From: Eremomyces bilateralis CBS 781.70 | Lineage: Eukaryota; Ascomycota; Dothideomycetes; Eremomycetales; Eremomycetaceae | Assembly (NCBI RefSeq): GCF_010015585.1 | Contig: NW_022985069.1 | Span: 1,655,846-1,719,845, forward strand | Length of the DNA: 64,000 nucleotides | Reading direction: 5' to 3' | Shown: in pieces, positions 13,348 through 57,493 of the stretch | Layout of the letters: every line of letters starts with the position of its first letter | Numbering within the stretch: the first letter of the stretch is position 1 | Notes under the pieces: model-generated | What the model saw: the letters and a program-made list of their open reading frames with translations, nothing else | What the model was told of the DNA's origin: nothing | Database searches by the model: none | Program-made: the position numbers and the translations under genes

Positions 13348-16300
13348 TTAAGAGACCCAAATCAGCACACCCACTCCAAGTCCGGATGAGCTCGCTGCTC
13401 GTTCCGCGCACACAAAACATGGTCCTCCTGTCCTCCGAATCACAGCATTTTTCCCCCTTTCCGAGCACCAAGCTCGAGCAAGCAGCTCGGCGCCGTTGCC
13501 GGTGGCATTGATGACCATAACATTCCTTTCTTCCGAGTCCTCCTCCGTATGGTCCTTGAGCCGTTCGACGGTCCAAATATTCTCATACCTGTACAATTCC
13601 CTCCGATGCACCTCGTGCGCACCCTTCGGCCCTCCATGGCAAGCCGGCACCGTGATAAATACCGGATTGGTGTATAGCCGGTAGGTAGTTAGCTCGTCAC
13701 TATCGTCCATCTTGAGCACAATCTGGGCGCGATACGCTGCCTGGCTATCAGAGTTCGGTTCGCTTGCTGATAGGTCCTTCTTCAGTTGGATGGCTTTCAA
13801 TTCACAAGTGCTGACTTGCCGCACCGGCGGTTCTGGGATGATCCAGTTTCTGGCATCTCGCATCTCAGCCGCCCATGGCCCAGGTTCTTCGCCCTCGCGG
13901 AGCTCTATATCTTTGTATGGATGGACTGAAGGAGCAATGTCGATGGGATCGCCGTCGTGCCAGGTTTTGTGCGGCAAAAGACTCAACTGCCGCGCCTTGA
14001 GGTGGACGTGACACGGCTGGTTTTCTGGAAGCGGTGGAATAATTTCGACAGGCGGGCAAGGACCGGTCCATCCGCAAAGCGAGATCACTCCTGGCAGGCA
14101 ACCGAGAACACGACCGAGAACCGTTCGGATACGCCAGTAGGACTTCTTCGGCAACGATAGTCCGCAATCGAACAATAGAGCGACACCCACAGATTCCTTA
14201 ATCGATGGTGTGCACAAAATCATAGCGCTCATGATTTTAAATGCACACCATTTGCCGGGGAGTGTCATGCCGTAGAGCCAGTCGTACAGATCGAGAGGAA
14301 TATTTTGCCCTCCCAGCATGGCGCCATACACATCTTCGGCGTAGTCTCGAACTTCATTCATATACGGCCACTTCATTTTGGCGGCAAATCGGAGGATTCC
14401 TTCCACCTGTTGCTCATGAACGCGTGAATACACCTTCACGGACTTCAAAATGATTTCAAAATCTCGATCGAGGTATGCCTTTCGAAGAACCTCTCGTTGA
14501 TCTTCGTCGGCTTTGTCAATAGCCTCAAGGCTTGCTTTTTCTTTCGCTTTCGCTTCGGCGAGACCTTTTCTCATTGCGTCGGTGGCATTGGTTCCCGCCA
14601 GACGCATTCCGGCCTCATACGCGCCAATTGCCGCTTTCAGAAGACCCAATTTGGCTGCCGCATGACCGAAGCGGGACCGTGCGTTGACGTATTTGGGGTC
14701 CAATTGCATCGCAATGGCCGCATCCTCCAGAGCTTTCTCGTGTCTTTCCATGGAGAGCTGCGCCGCTGATCTGTTGCTTCGATAGATGGCATTTCCCGGG
14801 TCGATCTTGATAGCTTCGGTGTAATTCTCGATGGCGTCGTCAAATTCTTTCCGTGCAAATGCTTCATTTCCCTTTTTCTTGAAAGCTTCCGCCTTTGCCT
14901 TCAACTCGGCCGTCTCTACCGCCTTGACCTCGGACAAGTCCAATTCCGGGTGAACCAGAATGATGGAAATATGATTGAGCCATAAATCCGCCACAATCAT
15001 CGATGCCAGAATTCTAGGGGTGAAGCCGGTCGAGTAGCTAGTCCTTTGACCATGCTCAAATCGTCTGGCGAGCTCTTTTGCAATGATGACCTGCCAGAGG
15101 AGGTTCCAGAGCTTATGTCCATCCCCAGGCGTGTGCCATTGGGATCCAATGCTAGAGGTCATTAAAAAGTTCGCGAAAATGTCAGTGCGGTTGAGTAGCT
15201 GAAACAGGTTCGAGAATTGGGTCCAATCGTCCACTGCATAAGCCGGGTTGATATATTTGATCCTACCGGGAGAATAGGTTAGCAAAAGATGTCCCTTTTC
15301 TCGTCATTGAGTAGACGTGTTAACTGTACCCCATATCGCCGGTGAAGTCTTTCAAGTCCACAGCATCCCTCTTAGGATTCCATCCGAACTGGGGTGGTCT
15401 GTTTTGCAGTTCGTCAATCCTCCGAAGCAGCGTTTTGGCCTTTATAGGGGGCATGTTTGAACGATTAACTAAGATTGTCTTCTTTAGAGGATGGTGCTCC
15501 TCTTCAAACTCCCAAGCCTCTAAACCAAACCCTTCAACGGTCACCGTGCCAGGATGGATACTCTCGTATTTGGGATAGCTTTCGATATTGAATAGGACTT
15601 GACTTTCCTCGGTGTCATCGTATTGGTAGTCTCTGAGTCCATCGATTTGACTCTTCAAAGGCTGGAACCGCTTCTTCTTGTACAATGCTTGCTTGGATCA
15701 GTATTCTGCGCCTTTCCGGTGACAGGATCATACTTACCAAACGATGCATGTGTTGTGGGAGGGTATGTGATGTCCCGATCCCACCAGCGATCCTCCTTTT
15801 TGCCACCCCAGTAGCAGTGGGTGGTGACCTTGGAGGTGTAGCTGTTTGCACCAAGGACCTGCAAACTCAAAGCCCCTGCGCGCTTCTTACCGCAGTAGAG
15901 GTCGATTTCGTTCAACTTCATCGCCAGTTCCGTTAGGGCTGGATCTTCTCCCTGAGTGGTTCTGCCATCGTCGCCATCGTCGACATCTTGGCGACTTTCA
16001 CGGTCTTCACCATCAGCGATAAGCGTTTGACTCGTCGTCCTATGGCCCGTTTGAAGCCCGGTCCCGGTGGTGCTCGCTGCACCAAGCATCCGCAGCCTCG
16101 CGCTCGCACAATCGGCTAGTTCTCTATACTCTTCTGCCGTCGCATCTTGAAGCAACCGAAGCTCCTCTACACTCGTGCTGCTCTTAACTTCAACTCTCAT
16201 TGCCTCTACAACCCGAGCCGTCGAGTCGGGGAACAAGTTCTCTAAACTGTCAATATGCCCTTGGATCTCCGTAATCATGGTCTGAAAATTCCGCTTGTTG

Positions 16301-16812
16301 TGAATTGCCCATCTTGTCTGCTTCTTTATGCTTGCGCCTCTCTGCGGATCACGCGCGCTACTCTGGAGACTCTCATAAGGCTTTTTGAAGATCGCCCTAA
16401 GTAGAAACTGCGCCTGTTCAACAGCAAGGCTGTCTTCTGCTTTTTTCATTGATGGCCGAAGCCCGAATGTGCTCTGCAGCCGCTCCGAGTCCTCAAATAC
16501 GTGCTGAATGCACGCGAGCAGCCGCATTACCGTATCCTTTGCATCTTTTCGCTCCAGGCGCGAATCCGGTTGAAGAACGTCGCCGTCGTTGTCGAGGCCG
16601 ATTGTGACGCCCCAACTAACTAGGCGAATTCGTTCGACTTCTAGCTTGACGCGAAGGAGCTCATATTCCATGCCATCATTCCGACCAGAATCGATCACTT
16701 CGAAAATCTGCACACATGTTTTCCAAAAAGTGACGACGCCGTGTACGACGTCAGCAGCGTCCGCCATCATTAAATTCAACCGACGTAGAACGGTAGAATG
16801 ATCAAAAGGCAT
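13348..16812 (-). CDS. HeLo-domain / TPR fusion protein
   Basis: Three exons (15738-16812, 15330-15687, 13348-15262) join in phase to 1115 residues; introns use GTAAGT/AAG and GTACAG/TAG. The N-terminal 200 or so residues match the HeLo domain pattern (FWKTCVQIFEVIDSGRND, ELLRVKLEVERIRLVSWG, then VMRLLACIQHVFEDSERLQ), the membrane-attacking domain of fungal cell-death proteins such as HET-S and of many fungal NLRs. The middle (about 350-595) is a region I do not recognise (QFGWNPKRDAVDLKDFTGDM). Residues about 598-715 are three TPR units of the Sti1/SGT co-chaperone type (KKKGNEAFARKEFDDAIENY, NRSAAQLSMERHEKALEDA). The C-terminal 400 residues contain a Cys/Pro-rich patch and no P-loop, so it is not a standard NLR. 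A role in self/non-self or stress-triggered cell death is inferred only from the HeLo part. Confidence 0.82.
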
Positions 16813-45116: not shown

Positions 45117-48100
45117 TCATGGCAACTGATTTCGAGCCTTCGATTCGGCGTCGCCAACGAGACGCATCATCCAGTGATAATCTGCAATGCTATGCCCCCG
45201 CCAAGCCACCCGCCGTTGTCGTGATAGCCAAGCGAGAAGTCCAGCATGGGCGGTCTGCTTCTGCCCAAACGTCTGCTCGAACGCCAGGTACCCGAGCCTG
45301 CATGAAAATCATACATGTCCCATCAGCTCATGACCGTGATTAAGGAAGATACCGGATACGAAGAAGGAGACTAGGTTTCACTTACCATTGCACGTGGCTT
45401 TCACAGGGAAGACGATGATCTGCACGACGGAACTTACCGTCGGGCATAGGGACATCAAAAAGGCTATTTTTGTCATCTTTCCGGGATCGACGGATTTCTC
45501 GGCCAACCCGCCGGGTCGGTCGACGACATGTCGAGGTGACTCCAAGCGCAATCAGGGCGTCAATGGTTCCTGTCGGGAGTTTAGTCTCCGTCTCACCTGG
45601 TAGTTCGCACACATTCGTGACCTACTCATCAAAAGCTGCTGTCCCAGCTTCTGTGCCTTGGGAAGCTCGCTCCAATAGTGGAGACAGCGACATGCAGCGT
45701 CGAGGAAAGACTGATAGAGGTTGCTTAACACCGTTGTGGTGCTGTTGAAGCTCGAGTCGAGTAGTGATCCCTTGATTTGAACCTTGAATCCGCTGCATGC
45801 ACGGTTAGTCCAACATTCCCTCACTCATTGACATCGTCGTATACTTCAAAGTTCTTCGGTAGAAACTCCGCCCTGGGACCTGCGTGTATTCGACAGTGAG
45901 CGAGTCTTTCATTCCTATTCGGCAAAATCGGTCAGTGAATGGTCGGTGTCGCATCAGCTGGTTCGACTCACCGTCATGTCCTTCCTTGGCCGGTCTTCGC
46001 CTGACCTCCAGTGTTTCCGTGTCAATGTACAGACCACAATACAGGAAGTACTGCCCTTCCCGAACCAATCCAACACTTTCTTGTTCCGCCAACCCTTCAG
46101 CGTTAACTAGGGTCTTCTCCCTCTGTACCTTGATCCCCCAGTCCGGCTCGCCATTGTGCATGATCTTCAGGAACCGTCGGACATAGTCCTTGTTCGTGCT
46201 AATGAGCAGAAAGTCGTCGATAAGCCGGAGCAACACACTCTTGGGGTTTCCGCCATCATCTTCTTGTAGGAAGCGAAGCTTTTTATCCTCGAAATCGGCA
46301 TAAAAGAAGTTGCAAAGCAGGGCCGACAGTATCGACCCCTGCGGGACGCCCTTTCGTCGCCTATACAATGTATTGCCGATCTTCACGGCGCTATACTTCA
46401 AATGCTCTTGTAGGGAAGCCAAGAGTGTTCGCCGATCCTCCGTCTTCTCATTAGGGGCATCCAGAAAGACTGCGCTGTTCTTAGCTGAGGTATGCAGGGC
46501 GCGAATGCGGTCTGGGAAGGGTGTCTCATCGCCGATCCGTTGGGCATGTTCATTCCAAATCGTGATGGGCTTGTTTAAGGCTTTGCCGTTGGCATGGTCG
46601 CCTTGCCGTGCATGGTAGGTAAGCCATGGATCGGTGTTTCCCAACATACGAGTCTCATAATGGGATTTAAAGGCGTACTCATCCAGCGACAGGATCTTAG
46701 AGACGTGATGGAGGAGGGCCTCTTGGGGAATCGTATCAAAGCAAGACTGGACATCAACCTTAGCGAAATATAACTTCTGCGGTTGGTTAGACGTCATTCC
46801 CAGGGCCCGGCGGAAATCTGCCAATCGAGGATAGATGTCGGCCACTGAGAAAAGGGAAGATCCCAACCTTGACGGATCTAGGAGCTGCACACTGTCAGTC
46901 GAATCCGATAAAGAAACATGGAGGAAGCGTTACCTTCTCGTACTTCAACGCATTGAATATGGGCTTCAACGAGTAGTTGATACTTCTCCCCAACATCACT
47001 CTTTTGCCATCTCGCACCTGCCATCGTTTCCGCAAATTGGTGATCATCCGAACACCACTCTTTTTGGGCAAGAGTCTGACACTACCTACTCCGGCTGCCG
47101 TGGATCTTAAGAGTTGATCGGTGCTCTCCCGGGGAACCGGTTCGAACATGTTGGATTTGAACTCTTTTATGTAAGGTATTGTGAGCTTCCGCCAGACATC
47201 GTGCCGAAAGTAGAACAGTTGTTGTTTATCGACGTTTGACTCCGTAACATAGAAATTCGATCGTATCAGGGGAATCAAAAAGGAATCAAAAAGGTAGTAG
47301 ACGAGTTCGAGAAAGATTTCTTTTCGTTTCAAGGCTTCGAATTTGCCGACTTTGGCGTCGGGGGTTGTCGGTGAAGAACTCACCCAAGCAATGGTTGATT
47401 GCTGTATTCCTTCCATTACATTGTGCAAGCTCAAAGTCTCCCTCTTCCGTATACGGAGAAACTGGTCAATTAACTTCATGATGCATTCGGCGTTTTGCCT
47501 ACTTCCCCAACAATCGCTAGGAAAGACTCGAGCGACGATGGCTCGACAAAATGCGGAAACGTGAGCAACAGGGGTGGCGAACTCGGTCAAACACTGGTTG
47601 GGGAAATCGGGACCAATTCCCTGGCCCAGACGCTTGTCATTGGTTTTACAATAGTGAAGCAGGAGTATCCGATATGGACAGCGTCTGTGGCGTTTCCGCA
47701 ACCTGCCAACGAGCACCTTTGCACCTGGTTTCAGTCTTTTGGGAACCGTACTGGGGATGATTGCCGGAAATTTCTCGGGGCCCTTAAGTCCCGGCCGAAT
47801 CTTCAACGTTGCATCGGCAATCTCTCCCTCTCGAAAAGTGTAGTCTTTCGACGCCAGGGCAGTCTCGTTGCGGTCAACCTTAAAAGTGAAGACGTTGTGC
47901 AAGCCAAACTGGCGTGGGAAAATATATTTGAGGATGTGGCATAACTCGGCCGAGTTTTCAACGTCATGAAGCCTGTTGAATACATCTACTTGATGTCAGA
48001 GAAGGGTGGGAGTTGGAAAGGAAGTACTAACGGTTAGGGTGGAGGCCGAAATTAATAAACCCCCCAGGTTTATATGCAGGACGAGCATAGAGGATCCGAG

Positions 48101-49060: not shown

Positions 49061-51784
49061 CTTGACTACTATGTATAATGGGTGATGGCTGAGGAAGATA
49101 ATTGTACCATGCTGTAACTGTAGGAGACGGATGAAATAATACTGTAATACTGGGATGAGGTTGGGAGACGCGATCTGACCAGGCGACGCGATCAGATGAA
49201 TGCCTCAGGCACCAAGGAGCCAATGTCATCAATCAATCCGAATGAACCAGGAAATCATTGAACCTTTGCTCCTGTCCCTCTACCAAAACACCAACTGAAC
49301 GATATTTTGCAGAATGACCTGGTTCAAACCTTCCGTGGTACAAACCAAGCGGCTTCAAACATAGTCCTGTCATGCCGTGGCACAGGATGGCCTACCTGAT
49401 TTGATTAGTGCATGTGAGGATGAGTTGTCCTGGATGATCCCTTGCAGCGTGCAGGTTCCGTTGCATCTGGCAGCGGATGATTCGATAGTTCGATGATCCG
49501 ATGAATCGACGATTCGCCTGCAGCTGCGGGAAGCCATCCACGTCCTGCATCATTGCGCCTTGCGGTGTTTTGGCTGGGTTGAATGCCCTATTACCGCACT
49601 GTAATCTGGACGGTTCTGCGCTGGGCACCAGATGGGAAAACACGAAATGAGGGTCAGATGTGTCCGTCTCTCCATGCGTTCCCACTTCCAAATCTTGGAC
49701 ATCGATGTTGTATGTAAGATTTACCCGCTGCGGTATAGCTTGGACTCGTTGAGCCACCTGTATCACCACTCGTGGGCAAGTGTCCATGGATGGGAATGAG
49801 GATGGAATTGCTCCTTTTCCGGTTTCCAAGAATGCCCTGAGAGCTATGTTTAGACTTTAGAGTACCGCTGCATGAAATTGAATCCACCCTGCGCCAGCCT
49901 GGCTATGCGATCCGAGGCGTTGGATCCCAAACAGGCTGCTGTTTATCAGAACGATCCAACCATTCGAGAATCCGATCCCAATAATCCGGACGGACAACAA
50001 AGGAGGGCTTCGTATTCAACGCAGTCTGCATTCTACAGCCAACTCATACGAGATGTGGCACTTTTCTCCTTCTCGGCAATACAGGTCATTCAGTGGCAGG
50101 AGATATGAGCAGGAACGAGATATGTCAACTTTCCGACATCTCTAGTAACTTAGGCATGGCAAACCCTAGTGTCGGAAAGTTCCTTCAACGCCCTCCACTT
50201 TTCAACATCCATTGATTGATCAAAGATTCATCGATGATTATTAACACCGGGACAGTCCGCCATCCGGACCAGCCACAAAGGAAGAGGAAAATGAGAAGAG
50301 AGAATCGGATCAGGCCCGCCGAGTATAGGGTTAGTGGCGCCGGTTAGGAGTTAAGACGGAACGGTTGTCATAGCGTGTCAGTGTGGCTTTCTCCATTGAA
50401 AGTTTTGATGATGTGAAACGTTGGAAGGCTTGGAATCGGACATCAAGAACCATTCCACTCTCCTCGCTCTCCACTTAAGAATCTAGAATCTACGGATCAG
50501 CGGCACCATCACATCGATAGTGTGAGGGCCTGAGGGGAGAATTTTGGTCCTTTGTGTAATTGGGTGGGATGGAGATCCGAGATGGAGTGTCCGGAATGAA
50601 CTCCTGATTCCTGAAGAAATTGTCTGCAATTCTGCAACCGACGGTGGATGTGGAGAGGTTTTGGACCGAATTCCGTGTATCGTTGCACATCGGGAGGGAG
50701 AGATGTTTGTAGCCGGCGAGGCACAGCGGTCTCCGAGTGAGACTCCGACCGACTTGGAGGCAGTGGTAATAGAATTAATATGCAAAGGGCAGATGCTGGA
50801 CCTATCTCCAGTGGATCCGGTATATTTTAATACAGAATGATGAAGCGATGAAGTTGGAGAGCCCACCAGGGACAGTTCATGATTCCGTGCTCCCGGTACG
50901 CCGTCCTCCCCCATATTCCCACCGGACGAGGCTGTGAAGACTGAAGTGTGAACAGTGCGGGCGGAGAATTAGTTAATAGTTAGGGAGTTGGGAAATTGAG
51001 GGGGACCAAGATAAAAGCAAAAAAAAAATATCTGCAATTTGAGATTACTACGTACGACCGGTCTATCTCTCAATCCTCTCTGGTTAATTCCTCACTTTCT
51101 TACCGTTCTCTTGCTCATTGTTGGCTCCATCGCTGTGTTGCCCACCACTGTGAACTCTCTCACTGGCATCTCCGCTCTCCAGTCTCCCCATTATTGACAC
51201 CCACACCACATACCACCCTCTCGCACTCCCCCTTCGGTATTATTACTATATCTCCAGGCTGTGCTCCCTATATTCTCATCCAACTCCTTACTTCCCTGAC
51301 GTCCCGATCCAAAATTCTACTGAACTACACCTCGATCCCTCCTATTCCTAGCCGCGGTCCCTCCCGCAACCCGATTGACCGATTCCCGTCTCCTCTCCAA
51401 GTCCTACACTCCTATCTCCTCTCGGGTACGTGGATTTCCCCAATAGGACCTCCGATGCTCCAGTAGGAAATTCAGTTTCATCCAAGCGGCCAAAACCGAT
51501 CCCTTCTCATCGTGATTGGCCGCATGCCTCATCAACACTTGCACCGCCCACGCTGCGCGTCGTGCGTCTATTGGCACTTCACCCTGTCTACCACCACGTC
51601 CTCCACCACGTCGTCTTGCTTCCCCGACCCTCGCCTCGTCATCCGTTCGTCCCTTTGATCACTGCAGACTCCTCCCAAGTTACGAAGCACCTCGATCGCG
51701 GTCACTGGAGTGCCGATTGGAGTCGGATTGCCTCGCTGCTGTCCAACGGTTCATGATTCCCCTGTGCCCTGCTGTCATGACAGG
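49061..51784. other. 2.7-kb region between TERT and the RhoGEF gene
   Basis: Contains the TERT promoter and a long leader of the RhoGEF gene. Two ATG frames are coding-like but unsupported by family: minus 49392-49829 (145 codons, LVPSAEPSRLQCGNRAFNPA) and plus 50544-50840 (98 codons, WSVRNELLIPEEIVCNSATD), the latter facing a 143-codon antisense frame. A degenerate run of GATTCGAT/GATCCGATGAAT units lies at 49468-49518. From about 51060 to 51780 the plus strand is markedly C/T-rich, as in long 5' leaders of fungal regulatory genes. Confidence 0.4.
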
Positions 51785-54700
51785 ATGCAGTCGGTCCAGC
51801 CCGATCATCACCATGAGGGAACTTCGGCCGCTGCTCCCATCACCACCGCCTTTCACGACCAACATCCAACTCCACCCTTTACCGACCCCATTTACGATCA
51901 GGCCCACGAGTTTTACCGAAATGGATTCCCGACCTCGCCGTCTCGTCCGGACATAGTTGTCGCGGGCCACGAACACACCATGCCAACGAACCATCGTGCC
52001 CCGTCAGCCGGAGCTGCCGTAACGTCCAAAGCAAACCCGTCCGTCCGATCGACATCCAATCCCACCACCACTGCCACCGCGACGCCTACCTCATCCACCG
52101 GGCATGGACCTGCAAAACCAGCACTCACTTCAAGAATCCCCTCAGGCGGCGTGCGTGACCGGATCAATCAGTTTAATCAGGGCGGGACCCATGTCCCGAT
52201 TCCCATGAAATCTTCACGCGCTCCCACCACTTCCGAATCTCGAATTTTTTCTGCCGCACCTCCTACAGTTAGAGCCAGAGAAACGTCCAGACGCAAGGAT
52301 GCCGGCCCACGAGGGGGATCCGACGGTCGAAATGCCCCTCTCCGCCGGAAGACATCTTCTCATAGCTCCGGCTCGACTCCCTCTTCTGCTCGCAGGGGCT
52401 CGGGTGCTCGACCGCCGCTTTTTGGAGAGGTCATGACGAACGGAGCGCAAAGCGCCGGGTATGGCATCCCGACCTTGGTAAAGCAGCGAAGCAATATCGA
52501 AGGAAGCATGCACAAGCCGAATGCCATGTTTGCCGAAGATCGGGCGCTTTCCGACACCGAAGAAGCTCGATCTCCCCGTTCACCTCGATCTCCTCACTCG
52601 CCGCGCGACCTCCCGAACCGCCTTCACCGACCTCCTACAATCAGTTCGTTGCATCGACGGGCACAGAGCGAGACGTCGGGCGTCTTTAATGCCAATTCGG
52701 AGAAATCGACCTATAACGCCGAGCTGAATCATGAGGCTCCCCTACGGGAGCCATATAGTCCTTCGAGCCCCATCTTCACGGCCTCATCATCCCGGATCCC
52801 CGTCAAAGCAAGACGATCGAGCATGTCTAATGGGTCGCCCTCGATGCCACCCAATCCTCACGCCTGGTCCTTTTCATCCCATAGTTCTGGAGCCACGGCA
52901 TCTCTGCGGCCGCAATCGCGAAATCTACTGCACAAGGAAATTCCGACGAGAAGCCGACCCAGTACACCGCCAGTATACCGTCGGTATGAACCGTCACCGC
53001 ATCGTTCACGAGTTCCACGAGAAACGATGAACGCCACCATTCAAGTCCCACCGCCCTTGAAGGATTCACCCCGACTTCGTAGTTCTCGCCCTCGCCAGCC
53101 GGTGTCCTCTGCCAGTACTGCAGCATCTCGAGCACGAGCAGCGGAGCGTGTGACATCGCCATCTCCGACCAATCCCACAAGTCGAGGCAGTCCGACCAAT
53201 CCCACAAATCGACGCGGTCCCGCTAAACTCAAACGAATTCCAGGCGTAGTAGACACCAACGCGCGCCGTCGACCGTGGCAGAAGAACATCTCCACACCGA
53301 CAGTTTCGACCATTCCTAAATCCCAGCCATCTCCCCGAGACTCTCCGCGATCCGCCATTACTGGGGATTATAATCACTCATTCACCGAAAGCACTCCCGG
53401 CGCTTGGCCTGACAGCCCCGAGACGCCCCAACTCCATAGCTCAACCAGCCCTCACCGAACGAGTCCCTCTCACCCGAGTACACCCAAAAACAATACCATC
53501 CAACCCCCTAGACTTGGTCTTGCTGTTACAGGTCTTCCTATTGCCACTGACCTTGACAAACCTTCGAGCGCACTGACGGAGTTTGAATTCGACGGATCGC
53601 CCGTTATAGGATATGATGTGACATATCAGGGGCCTGCACTTCTTGCGGCAATGCCGCATGAACCCCAGGCTATTGACGCTTCTCCTACCGACGACAATCA
53701 TCTCGACCGATGCTCTTCGACTGATGAGTGCGCGTCAATTTGCGACAATATAGAGGACATCCGCTTTGCTAACGGCGGGATAACGCCAAATGACTGTTCA
53801 GCTACCGATTCCTGCGCCGAAACGTCGGATGACCTAGATTCTGATAGAGAAGAGCAGTCGATTCAAATCGCTCTCCGGAACACGCCCGTGATCAGTCCGA
53901 CAAATGGAAACTGGAGCCTGGACCATTCGGGAGGAGCATCCGACCACAGTTACAAGCCAATGATGCCCCAAGTGGAGGAATTCCCGGATGATGCGTCCGA
54001 TGTTGCTTGCAGCATCCTCCCTGATGATTCTGTTAGTGTGGTCATGGCTAGCAGACCAATCCAGAATCCTGGTCCAACTCCACCACCTAAAATTCCCGTC
54101 ATAGAAGAAATACCGGTGGACGAGAGCGGACACACGCTCACGAGCGAAGCGCGCAGCGTGGTCAATCGTGTCTTTGACCATTACCATGCTTTGCAAAACT
54201 TGAGTCCGGAAATGGCTGACCAGTTCAAGAACGAGGTCGAGGCAGCAACCCCGAGCTTACCAAAACATGGCGATTGGGAGTCACAAGAGAACACTCGGCT
54301 ATACCTTCAGGATATTCTAGACGGTCCCCGCACTCCGACAGCTTCGCGGCGCGATGAGGAGCCGATACCGCCCAGTGAAACTGGGACCGCGCTCTCATCC
54401 TATCCGTTTGTCGCCAATCCACCTACGGAAGACCATTTAGGGACCGCAATCATTTATAGCAGCTCTACCCCGTTCGAGCCGCCATCCGAGACCGACGTCC
54501 GCGAACCTCATCATAGGAATAGCGCGAGTGTTTCAACACTTCGACCTTCGCCTGGTCCTGACGGGAACACCAGTCCCATTGCGACCAGCTTTCCAGACGC
54601 CGCGGGCGAGCTGCTTGCGCCGGCAACATATCAGCCGCAGCGATCCAATGTCCATCTCCACGACCCCGCTTCAATCCTCGGGGCACTCCCTCGCGATGAG

Positions 54701-57493
54701 ACGAGCACGTTGCAGACGTCGGGCACCATCCATCTCGGCCTGGGGCTTGATGGGTTGCCCATTGCCGAACCCACTTTGGCTGTTCCACCCATGCCAGATT
54801 ATGCACCCCCTCCGCACCCTCCGCCTCCACCGCCCGCGACCATGTCAGAGACGCTGAGTCAATTGAATGGGCAAGCTCGATCGCCCCCCTCCGCGAGTTT
54901 CTACAAGCGCAATGCATTTTCCACCATTTCACAATCAGCGTACGTCGAACCAGGATCCTATAGACCCGAGTATTCCAGCCATTCCCAAGAGCGCCGTCAA
55001 ACCGTGGCTGGAGCGTCGGTCGTGGATTCCGAGGCCGCCAAAGCCGTCGCGGAATCGTCTGTGGGCTCGGTTGCAACCGTCATGGCGCCCCAGGATTCTG
55101 CCGTCGACCTCGAGACGCAGATGTCCGCCAAATCGAAAATTCTCAAAGACTTGGTCGAGCGGAAAAACATCCTCAAAGAGTTGTGTGATACCGAGTATTC
55201 GTATCAACAAGACATGATAATTCTGGAGGACATATATAAATCGACATCGACTGGGATCCTCAATGACGCCGACCGGAAAGTTTTGTTCGGGAATTCCGAC
55301 CAGATCCGCCTCTTTGCTACGAAATTGCAAGACGCTTTGAAGCAAGCAGTTTCCTCAGTCTATATCATGCCGCGACAAAATCGTTGGAACGCGAAACGCG
55401 GCAGTTTCTCGACGTCAAGCAGTGCTACAAACGAGACATCACTGGATTCTGACGCCAGTCTGTCAAAGGACGATCGGATTGAAATAGACCAGCGTACTAG
55501 AGTCGGTAACGCGTTTCTCGCCAACATGGAGGAGATTGAGCGCGTCTACAATGTCTATTTGCGCAACCATACCGCGGCGAACAATAAATTGACCGAACTC
55601 AAGGCAGAACCCAATGTCGAGGCTTGGATGGAGGAGTGTCGAAAGATGGCTGCCGATTTGACGAGCGCGTGGAATCTGGATGCGCTGCTCGTCAAGCCAA
55701 CGCAACGGATCACCAAGTATCCGCTCATCCTGCGGAACTTGCTGCAGGTCACAGTCAAGGAACACCCGGATTACGCCGACATTGAAAAGTCGCTCCTGCA
55801 GTTGGAGGAACTGCTTCACAAAATGAACGATTCGAAGAAACGGGCCGAGCTCGTGGACCAAGCGATGAGCCAGAACCGCAGGCGGAAGGAGTCCGATATT
55901 CGCCTCTTCCCCCAGAAGTTTGTCAATCGTCGCGCCGAGAAATTGAAGCAACAGGTGGGGCTTTCCAATTCTGCGATCGATGCGGACTACGACAAACTGT
56001 CTCAGCGCTTTGGCGGGCATTTCTTCCAGTTGCAGATTGTGATGAGGGATGTTGAGAACTACATCCGCGAAGTGCAAGCCTATGTTTCTCGATATGGCCA
56101 TTTCCTCTCCGCGTCCGAACACTTCCTGGGCTTCGATATCCAAAATCAGCATCCCGAGGAGCAGAGTCACTTCGTCATCTTCGCTCGAACGGTCCGGGAG
56201 GTCATCGCCGTGGCACTCCCCGAACATACGGCGAAGATCCGCAAGTCCGTCATCGAGCCGATCCAGACCCTCTGGCAACTCCATGAAAACCCTCAGCAAT
56301 TGATGCGAAAACGAAAGAAGCGCGTCGTGGACTATGCCAAATGGAATGCCATGGTTGAGAGGGGCGAGGCGCCCGATAAGAAGCTTCGGGATGCCGCAGA
56401 CCAATTCAAAGCCATCAACGAGACGCTGAAAGATGAGTTGCCGAAGCTGTATGATTTGTCCAGCAAGCTTATGAAGGTATGCTTGGAAAATTTCATCGAG
56501 TTGCAGAAGCAATGGCAGGACACATGGATGAGGAAATTGGAACCGGCTGCTCGAGAGCCTCAGATCACCGATGATTACAGCTCCGACATGCTCGCACTTG
56601 AACGCGACTATAATGACAACTTCGCATACGTGGACGAGCGAATGCAAACTTTGGGAGTCCTGAATGGCAAGACTCTTGAAGAGGCTTCCCGCTTCCTATC
56701 CTCCACGCCGTCTTTGAACGAGGAAGGCTCATCCAAGCGACCATCGACCGTGGGGAGCTCAAAACGTACCATGTCCGTTGGCGGGGAGCAGTCTCCTGGC
56801 GCCCCCTCTAGCAAAGACCACCACCGTGTCAGCGGCACCTTTTCACCGCCCTTCTCACCTCCCGGGTCCGGCTACGTCATCCCCGACAGCTTTTCTCTCG
56901 GATCACCACCCGCGACCCGCACTCGAACCAGCTCGGCCCTCTCTAGCCGTGGGCCATCCACTCCCCGCTCTATGTCTGCCCAAACCCCAGGCAATGCGTT
57001 TTATTCGTCCAGCGCTTTGCACCGCTATACGGATCTGCCGAGCGCGCCGCCTCGCCTTAGTGTCGATCTCTCGTCCGAGCAACTACCATCACCACGCTTT
57101 GCCGCCTTCCATGGCTCGGTGTACGGCCAGCCTCCCGAGGTCGATAGACAGTCTCGGCAATCACAGGAGTCGGTGCTTGGCTGGCACAGTGGCATCTTCA
57201 ACAGCGCGATGCCCATGTCTGAGTCTCCACTCGACGCCACGCATCCCAATCTCATGGGCGACGAGGATGAGGACCCGGAAGTCATCTTCGTGGCCGCCAG
57301 CCTTTTCGAGTTCCGCATCGACGACTCGAGGAGCTTCGTGGGGTTCCCGTACTTGCAGTACTCGATGGGCGAGATCTTCGATGTCATCGGGCAGCAGGGC
57401 GAGCTTTGGCTGGCACGGAATCAAGACGATCCGGACAAAAAGCACGGGTGGATCTGGGAGAAGCACTTCGCGAGGATCCTACCTGATGGATGA
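51785..57493 (+). CDS. Large Rho guanine-nucleotide exchange factor with DH, BAR and SH3 domains
   Basis: One exon of 1902 residues starting MQSVQPDHHHEGTSAAAP; the frame is open 25 codons further up but without ATG. The first 1100 residues are Ser/Pro/Arg-rich and include a Pro run (APPPHPPPPPPAT). The DH domain (about 1117-1372) shows KNILKELCDTEYSYQQDMII and LLVKPTQRITKYPLILRNLL, the GDP/GTP exchange core for a Rho-type GTPase. A BAR domain follows (about 1373-1592; KFVNRRAEKLKQQVG, YIREVQAYVSRYGHFLSASE), which binds curved membrane in place of the usual PH domain. An SH3 domain ends the protein (about 1828-1898; VIFVAASLFEFRIDDSRSFV, GELWLARN...GWIWEKHF). This DH-BAR-SH3 order resembles human Tuba (DNMBP) and suggests control of Cdc42/Rho in polarised growth or septation. 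Confidence 0.9.
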   Translation: MQSVQPDHHHEGTSAAAPITTAFHDQHPTPPFTDPIYDQAHEFYRNGFPTSPSRPDIVVAGHEHTMPTNHRAPSAGAAVTSKANPSVRSTSNPTTTATATPTSSTGHGPAKPALTSRIPSGGVRDRINQFNQGGTHVPIPMKSSRAPTTSESRIFSAAPPTVRARETSRRKDAGPRGGSDGRNAPLRRKTSSHSSGSTPSSARRGSGARPPLFGEVMTNGAQSAGYGIPTLVKQRSNIEGSMHKPNAMFAEDRALSDTEEARSPRSPRSPHSPRDLPNRLHRPPTISSLHRRAQSETSGVFNANSEKSTYNAELNHEAPLREPYSPSSPIFTASSSRIPVKARRSSMSNGSPSMPPNPHAWSFSSHSSGATASLRPQSRNLLHKEIPTRSRPSTPPVYRRYEPSPHRSRVPRETMNATIQVPPPLKDSPRLRSSRPRQPVSSASTAASRARAAERVTSPSPTNPTSRGSPTNPTNRRGPAKLKRIPGVVDTNARRRPWQKNISTPTVSTIPKSQPSPRDSPRSAITGDYNHSFTESTPGAWPDSPETPQLHSSTSPHRTSPSHPSTPKNNTIQPPRLGLAVTGLPIATDLDKPSSALTEFEFDGSPVIGYDVTYQGPALLAAMPHEPQAIDASPTDDNHLDRCSSTDECASICDNIEDIRFANGGITPNDCSATDSCAETSDDLDSDREEQSIQIALRNTPVISPTNGNWSLDHSGGASDHSYKPMMPQVEEFPDDASDVACSILPDDSVSVVMASRPIQNPGPTPPPKIPVIEEIPVDESGHTLTSEARSVVNRVFDHYHALQNLSPEMADQFKNEVEAATPSLPKHGDWESQENTRLYLQDILDGPRTPTASRRDEEPIPPSETGTALSSYPFVANPPTEDHLGTAIIYSSSTPFEPPSETDVREPHHRNSASVSTLRPSPGPDGNTSPIATSFPDAAGELLAPATYQPQRSNVHLHDPASILGALPRDETSTLQTSGTIHLGLGLDGLPIAEPTLAVPPMPDYAPPPHPPPPPPATMSETLSQLNGQARSPPSASFYKRNAFSTISQSAYVEPGSYRPEYSSHSQERRQTVAGASVVDSEAAKAVAESSVGSVATVMAPQDSAVDLETQMSAKSKILKDLVERKNILKELCDTEYSYQQDMIILEDIYKSTSTGILNDADRKVLFGNSDQIRLFATKLQDALKQAVSSVYIMPRQNRWNAKRGSFSTSSSATNETSLDSDASLSKDDRIEIDQRTRVGNAFLANMEEIERVYNVYLRNHTAANNKLTELKAEPNVEAWMEECRKMAADLTSAWNLDALLVKPTQRITKYPLILRNLLQVTVKEHPDYADIEKSLLQLEELLHKMNDSKKRAELVDQAMSQNRRRKESDIRLFPQKFVNRRAEKLKQQVGLSNSAIDADYDKLSQRFGGHFFQLQIVMRDVENYIREVQAYVSRYGHFLSASEHFLGFDIQNQHPEEQSHFVIFARTVREVIAVALPEHTAKIRKSVIEPIQTLWQLHENPQQLMRKRKKRVVDYAKWNAMVERGEAPDKKLRDAADQFKAINETLKDELPKLYDLSSKLMKVCLENFIELQKQWQDTWMRKLEPAAREPQITDDYSSDMLALERDYNDNFAYVDERMQTLGVLNGKTLEEASRFLSSTPSLNEEGSSKRPSTVGSSKRTMSVGGEQSPGAPSSKDHHRVSGTFSPPFSPPGSGYVIPDSFSLGSPPATRTRTSSALSSRGPSTPRSMSAQTPGNAFYSSSALHRYTDLPSAPPRLSVDLSSEQLPSPRFAAFHGSVYGQPPEVDRQSRQSQESVLGWHSGIFNSAMPMSESPLDATHPNLMGDEDEDPEVIFVAASLFEFRIDDSRSFVGFPYLQYSMGEIFDVIGQQGELWLARNQDDPDKKHGWIWEKHFARILPDG
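53166..53214 (+). repeat. 24-bp coding tandem duplication in the RhoGEF gene
   Basis: Two near-identical 24-bp units encode SPTNPTSRG and SPTNPTNRR near residue 460, in the disordered part of the protein. Confidence 0.6.

What the first reader, a model, noticed from the sequence alone, without database searches (positions are those of the whole stretch)
13348..16812. HeLo cell-death domain fused to a TPR co-chaperone-like module without an NLR core
The N-terminus reads as a HeLo domain and residues about 598-715 as Sti1/SGT-type TPRs, on one 1115-aa model joined by two introns in correct phase. Fungal HeLo effectors are usually paired with prion motifs or with NACHT/NB-ARC switches; here I see no P-loop. 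TPR domains of this type often bind Hsp90/Hsp70 EEVD tails, so this could be a chaperone-gated cell-death protein. The last 400 residues and the 350-595 region are unassigned.
Basis: partly seen in the sequence, partly recalled or inferred. Interest (0 to 1): 0.7.

Follow-up and report, generated by a model that had tools for sequence, protein, structure and literature searches.

The report
Cell-death-type domain fused to chaperone-type repeats
This fungal gene encodes one long protein that joins a membrane-attacking type of cell-death domain to repeats resembling those that dock onto heat-shock chaperones, built into an unnamed protein module; it is a real and unusual combination, but what it does is untested.

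Summary
At 13348-16812 (minus strand) a three-exon gene model encodes 1115 aa with a strong HeLo domain (PF14479, 160 bits, residues 24-221; HET-s structure 2wvo, E 3e-14) and an Sgt2-type TPR (about 594-730), without a Walker A motif. Translation more likely starts at M16 (16767), putting HeLo at the extreme N-terminus.

The 'unassigned' regions are two halves of an unnamed module found in three other genes of this genome (second half strong; first half significant to one of three). The TPR lies between the halves. The nearest paralogue has the same order, a predicted intron at the site and phase of intron 1, and its own TPR upstream. A false fusion of two genes is unlikely, though no RNA was seen.

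Chaperone-gated death is plausible but untested: one of five clamp positions is substituted (Asn for Lys), and no NACHT or NB-ARC match lies within about 559 kb. HeLo on multidomain proteins with uncharacterised regions is already in print, so this is a new variant of a known kind. The structure prediction failed (pLDDT 36), and no fungal protein collection was available for a survey.

The parts
16765..16767 (-). preferred start codon (M16 of the 1115-aa model): A at -3, G at +4; gives 1100 aa with HeLo at the extreme N-terminus
   Evidence: sequence context; Kozak preference recalled; HeLo almost always N-terminal per PMC3531502 section 22
15738..16767 (-). exon 1 from the preferred start
15688..15737 (-). 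intron 1, 50 nt, phase 1; a predicted intron of paralogue L025 has the same site and phase (HASF|A versus HPSF|R)
15330..15687 (-). exon 2
15263..15329 (-). intron 2, 67 nt, phase 2, branch-like GCTAAC; L025 has a predicted phase-2 intron about 3 alignment columns away
13348..15262 (-). exon 3 with stop codon
16150..16743 (-). HeLo domain, residues 24-221
   Evidence: Pfam PF14479 160 bits, 164 bits in six-frame genome search, HET-s HeLo structures 2wvo/2wvq/2wvn
14962..15927 (-). first half of the unnamed module, residues about 296-578, interrupted by both introns
   Evidence: blastp to spliced L025 E 1.2e-4, 21 percent identity; without composition correction the best piece (residues 395-578, across intron 2 only) scores 33.5 bits against a best of 25.8 in 500 shuffles
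14506..14916 (-). three-repeat TPR of Sgt2 type, residues 594-730, between the module halves; clamp positions K606, N610, N641, N671 (Lys in the resident Sgt2-like gene), R675
   Evidence: clamp positions recalled
13357..14418 (-). second half of the unnamed module, residues 760-1113, ending in E-x2-ARAWC-x3-G-x2-AV ... CxxC
   Evidence: paralogues L025 E 3e-58, L026 2e-22, L027 1e-10 and 6e-8 in two pieces; 36 invariant columns in 4 sequences; no Pfam or PDB relative

Best explanation
The gene encodes a HeLo-domain effector carried on an unnamed regulatory module, with an Sgt2-type TPR lying between the two halves of that module. The fused anatomy is shown by sequence. The mechanism is inferred: by analogy with HET-S, the N-terminal HeLo helix stays buried until the rest of the protein releases it and is then expelled to damage the fungus's own membrane. 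The two-part module with its TPR takes the place held elsewhere by an amyloid motif or an NLR and acts as the switch. Binding of an Hsp70/Hsp90-class tail to the TPR most likely holds the protein in its folded, silent state, so that loss of chaperone, or a change in the module, triggers it.
For: HeLo far over the Pfam cut-off and similar to HET-s structures. N-terminal hydrophobic stretch, best 19-residue mean 1.34 against 0.95 to 1.18 for the other three HeLo genes of this genome. TPR nearest to Sgt2: 46 percent to the resident Sgt2-like gene. One-gene structure supported by paralogue L025, which shares the module halves in the same order, a predicted intron at the site and phase of intron 1, and a TPR with an Sgt2 relative upstream. 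No Walker A motif and no NACHT or NB-ARC match found within about 559 kb on the contig. HeLo mechanism from HET-S: PMC3531502, passages and section 22.
Against: No functional data of any kind. The clamp has Asn at one of two usual lysine positions, so EEVD binding may be weak or lost. The N-terminal stretch is only moderately hydrophobic and carries charged residues; stretches at 562, 824 and 856 of the same protein score higher. HeLo occurs in many multidomain proteins whose activity is unknown. The structure model was too poor to use. The first-half homology is significant only to L025; L026 is borderline (E 0.06) and L027 shows nothing above noise (best E 9.2).
Confidence: 0.35

Rival explanations
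1. A chaperone-linked scaffold: the HeLo helix bundle serves as a non-lethal membrane or oligomerisation anchor and the module plus TPR do housekeeping or stress work; HeLo was captured from a cell-death gene but no longer kills.
For: Three paralogues keep the module, and the genome-wide HeLo search has no match at their places, so the module has a HeLo-independent function. The gene sits among ordinary genes (protease, mIF3, TERT, TBC) and no NLR match was found nearby.
Against: HeLo is matched over nearly its full length (profile 7-205 of 205) and has an N-terminal hydrophobic stretch.
Confidence: 0.3
2. An NLR-dependent effector in trans: the protein is triggered by an unlinked NLR of this genome through its TPR or module, as HET-S is by NWD2.
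For: The genome has 46 NACHT matches (38 over the cut-off) and 19 NB-ARC matches, 5 of these overlapping NACHT places. HeLo effectors in print can be controlled by NLRs (PMC10197012, PMC12881547, passages).
Against: No NACHT or NB-ARC match within about 559 kb. The NACHT model also rings in 11 of 14 control genomes (3 over its cut-off) and NB-ARC in 6 of 14 (3 over), so the counts overstate NLRs. No amyloid motif was recognised by eye; no motif model was run.
Confidence: 0.2
3. Two neighbouring genes wrongly joined by the reader: a HeLo gene and a TPR gene.
For: No RNA evidence is available; both introns are predictions.
Against: Exon 1 alone holds HeLo plus the start of the module, exon 3 alone holds TPR plus its end; the module match to L025 (E 1.2e-4) runs across both introns; a predicted L025 intron shares site and phase with intron 1.
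Confidence: 0.04

Closest known systems
HET-S of Podospora anserina (HeLo plus prion-forming domain)
   Same: N-terminal HeLo domain, matched to the solved HET-s HeLo structures
   Different: No prion-forming domain recognised by eye after HeLo; instead a long module with a TPR; no NACHT or NB-ARC match found nearby
HeLo-NB-ARC-TPR and HeLo-NACHT STAND/NLR proteins of fungi (PMC3321046, passages)
   Same: HeLo at the N-terminus and TPR further on in one protein
   Different: No Walker A motif and no NACHT/NB-ARC match; TPR is a three-repeat co-chaperone type, not a long sensor array (the latter recalled)
Sgt2/SGTA and HOP/Sti1 co-chaperone TPR domains
   Same: Three TPRs and C-terminal cap like Sgt2 (46 percent to the resident Sgt2-like gene); 4 of 5 recalled clamp positions kept
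   Different: Second clamp lysine is Asn (N671); embedded in a HeLo protein; no Pfam match other than HeLo and TPR families
HeLo-DUF7580 protein of the same genome (L028)
   Same: HeLo followed by a domain of unknown function
   Different: No DUF7580 match here

Membership tests
HeLo domain (PF14479) | profile match over the curated cut-off over the domain | tested here: met
   160 bits against 23.2, profile 7-205 of 205
HeLo domain (PF14479) | extreme N-terminal position with a helix of membrane propensity | tested here: inconclusive
   position met if M16 is used; hydrophobicity moderate, 19-mer mean 1.34; no TM predictor run
HeLo domain (PF14479) | cytotoxicity and membrane targeting | not testable with these tools
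   needs expression
HET-S type effector | C-terminal amyloid motif next to HeLo | not tested
   linker after HeLo read by eye only; no motif model run
HET-S type effector | adjacent NLR gene | tested here: not met
   nearest NACHT match about 559 kb away on C3; no NB-ARC match nearer
fungal NLR | NACHT or NB-ARC with P-loop | tested here: not met
   no such Pfam match up to E 1; no Walker A pattern
co-chaperone TPR (carboxylate clamp) | three TPRs related to HOP/Sgt2 | tested here: met
co-chaperone TPR (carboxylate clamp) | five clamp residues Lys/Asn/Asn/Lys/Arg (recalled) | tested here: not met
   4 of 5; second Lys is Asn671; the Sgt2 structure 5lyp has Arg there
cytidine deaminase fold (considered for the C-terminal CxxC motif) | profile similarity to deaminases | tested here: not met
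   hhalign to 5 of the 7 deaminase matches of this genome scores 13.6, within 40 column shuffles, best 15.2

The most novel reading that the evidence does not exclude
A cell-death executioner gated directly by a chaperone: a HeLo pore-former whose release is controlled by Hsp70/Hsp90 occupancy of an Sgt2-type TPR built into a so-far-unnamed switch module, so that proteotoxic stress triggers regulated death without any NLR or amyloid.
Probability: 0.15. Interest if true: 0.85.

Novelty: new variant of a known kind. Interest (0 to 1): 0.45.

Why it matters
HeLo-type helix bundles link fungal incompatibility to animal necroptosis and plant NLR immunity (PMC10197012, PMC12881547, passages), and the fungal triggers described in those passages are amyloid seeding or an NLR. 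A HeLo protein with a built-in chaperone-type TPR would be a third kind of trigger, and it is directly testable. The four-member module family, without a Pfam model, is a new handle on what HeLo proteins outside NLRs are attached to.

Tried and rejected
False fusion of two genes: judged unlikely from open frames, the module match across both introns and the shared site and phase of intron 1. NLR core hidden in the middle region: no Pfam match up to E 1 and no Walker A pattern. Deaminase-like C-terminus: the CxxC motif prompted a test; not supported. The genome search gave 7 deaminase matches, 6 were translated, one of these was dropped for a stop, and 5 went into the alignment; score 13.6 against 40 column shuffles with a best of 15.2. 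The last 61 residues alone gave one PDB match, E 0.91, taken as chance. The C-terminal profile gave 6 PDB matches at E 0.69 to 1.4, 5 of them perfringolysin O chains, taken as chance.

Relatives of the second half of the module in viral contigs and in bacterial/archaeal genome contigs: none confirmed (0 of 24 and 0 of 11 candidate stretches). Structure of exon 3 from a single sequence: mean pLDDT 36.1, pTM 0.27, so no fold search was made.

Literature searches: 9 papers; 0; 1; 77 found, 20 listed; 0; 1; 0; 35 found, 15 listed. Among the listings and passages seen, no HeLo protein with an Sgt2-type TPR and no NLR core was described. Of the 9 papers, passages of 5 were read and 4 were not opened. 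Only open-licence PMC papers were searched and no fungal protein database, so the architecture may well exist elsewhere.

Full report
What was checked. Intron 1 begins GTAAGT, carries CTGAT and ends AAG; intron 2 begins GTACAGT, carries GCTAAC and ends TAG (branch-site pattern recalled). Within exon 1 the HeLo region and the start of the next region share one open frame; within exon 3 the TPR and the C-terminal region share one open frame.

Domains. Pfam gives HeLo at 160 bits (cut-off 23.2) over residues 24-221, profile 7-205 of 205, and ten TPR models with best stretches between residues 600 and 701; these 11 are all the families up to E 1. Against solved structures the HeLo part matches three HET-s HeLo chains (2wvo E 3.3e-14 with the full protein, 5.9e-15 with the domain), and the TPR matches Sgt2, HOP and PP5 domains, besides engineered TPR proteins. 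Among the places found in this genome the TPR is nearest to an Sgt2-like gene (E 2.7e-22; 46 percent over 116 residues; the name Sgt2 for that gene rests on its TPR and on recalled features). No Walker A pattern is present.

Start codon. The ATG at 16812 has C at -3; the ATG at 16767 has A at -3 and G at +4 (the rule is recalled). Starting at 16767 puts HeLo at the very N-terminus, where HeLo domains almost always are (PMC3531502 section 22, read).

The unassigned regions. A whole-genome search with residues 715-1115 finds three other genes: at C7:919664 (L025), C5:895703 (L026) and C30:160226 (L027). Searching back with C-terminal pieces of L026 and L027 finds the same four genes and no others at E 0.1; the tool scores only its best candidates, so this is a lower bound. 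Residues 760-1113 align with L025 at E 2.9e-58 and L026 at 1.8e-22; L027 aligns in two main pieces at 1.4e-10 and 5.5e-8. In the four sequences 36 columns are invariant. None of the four members has a Pfam match better than E 0.31, and there is no PDB relative. The first half, residues 296-578, aligns with spliced L025 at E 1.2e-4 and 21 percent identity, across both introns. Without composition correction its best piece is residues 395-578, across intron 2 only; it scores 33.5 bits, above all 500 shuffles (best 25.8). L026 is borderline (E 0.06) and L027 shows nothing above noise, so for these two the first half rests on the multiple alignment only.

Order and introns. In L025 the module halves come in the same order, joined by a Thr/Ala-rich linker at the place where the window protein holds its TPR; L026 and L027 have no TPR there either. 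Whether the TPR was gained here or lost elsewhere is not shown. L025 has a predicted intron at the site and phase of intron 1 (HASF|A versus HPSF|R, phase 1) and a predicted phase-2 intron about three alignment columns from intron 2; splice sites in L025 were chosen by eye. L025 also has a TPR upstream of the module, whose best PDB relatives are TmrC (E 6.8e-9) and Sgt2 (1.5e-7); the join of that exon to the module was judged plausible by eye and not tested. The module match across the introns is the main argument that HeLo and TPR belong to one transcript. RNA data were not available.

Chaperone clamp. With the five carboxylate-clamp positions of HOP TPR1 recalled from the literature, the window protein keeps K606, N610, N641 and R675 but has N671 where the resident Sgt2-like gene and HOP TPR1 have Lys. 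The Sgt2 structure 5lyp has Arg at that place in the printed alignment. Docking of Hsp tails is therefore possible, not established.

Surroundings. Of 34 open frames of 200 aa or more, 9 besides this gene were scanned and 7 had a match: aspartyl protease, mIF3, nitronate monooxygenase, TBC protein, reverse transcriptase and telomerase RNA-binding domains (two frames, read as one telomerase gene), DUF829. The genome search shows four HeLo places and none in 14 control genomes, 46 NACHT matches (38 over the cut-off) and 19 NB-ARC matches, 5 of which overlap NACHT places. These two models also ring in 11 and 6 of 14 control genomes (3 each over the cut-off), so they overstate NLRs. The nearest NACHT match on this contig is about 559 kb from the gene.

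How it may work. Shown: one gene model, HeLo, Sgt2-type TPR, two-part module, paralogues. Taken from print: HET-S HeLo exposes an N-terminal segment of about 34 residues that inserts in and perforates membranes (PMC3531502, passages and section 22). Inferred: that this HeLo does the same, that the module is the switch, and that the TPR ties the switch to a chaperone. A mammalian precedent that a chaperone restrains a related form of death is HSPA8 against RHIM amyloids (PMC10624691, abstract and outline), by a different route that needs no co-chaperone. PMC4986451 (passages) notes that HSP90 with SGT1 and RAR1 serves NLRs in plants and animals; SGT1 is not Sgt2.

Novelty. PMC3531502 already states that HeLo occurs in many proteins with uncharacterised domains, almost always at the N-terminus, and PMC3321046 describes HeLo-NB-ARC-TPR proteins (passages). 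No HeLo protein with an Sgt2-type TPR and no NLR core was met in the searches listed, which cover open-licence papers only. It is therefore filed as a new variant of a known kind, of moderate interest. The host species was not identified, and no survey of other fungi was possible.

Noticed in passing
L028 (G000:C1:1514556-1515131) and L029 (G000:C1:2218118-2218654): Two other HeLo genes of this genome lie 6.2 kb from an NB-ARC match (C1:1521365) and 9.3 kb from a NACHT match (C1:2227939), which recalls HET-S/NWD2-type pairs; L028 is HeLo-DUF7580.
   Followed up: partly
L025 3931-6202, L026 1848-4230, L027 1854-4724: Three paralogues of the unnamed module, with a C-terminal E-x2-ARAWC-x3-G-x2-AV and CxxC signature; a candidate new protein family. 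L025 has a TPR upstream.
   Followed up: yes
L030 1301-2818 (G000:C11:731875): A HeLo frame of 506 aa whose C-terminal part has no Pfam match and looks disordered by eye.
   Followed up: no
window 45805-47995: Telomerase reverse transcriptase gene (Telomerase_RBD and RVT_1 matches) about 29 kb from the HeLo gene.
   Followed up: no
window 51659-57493: A 1944-aa open frame, stop to stop, on the plus strand that was not scanned.
   Followed up: no
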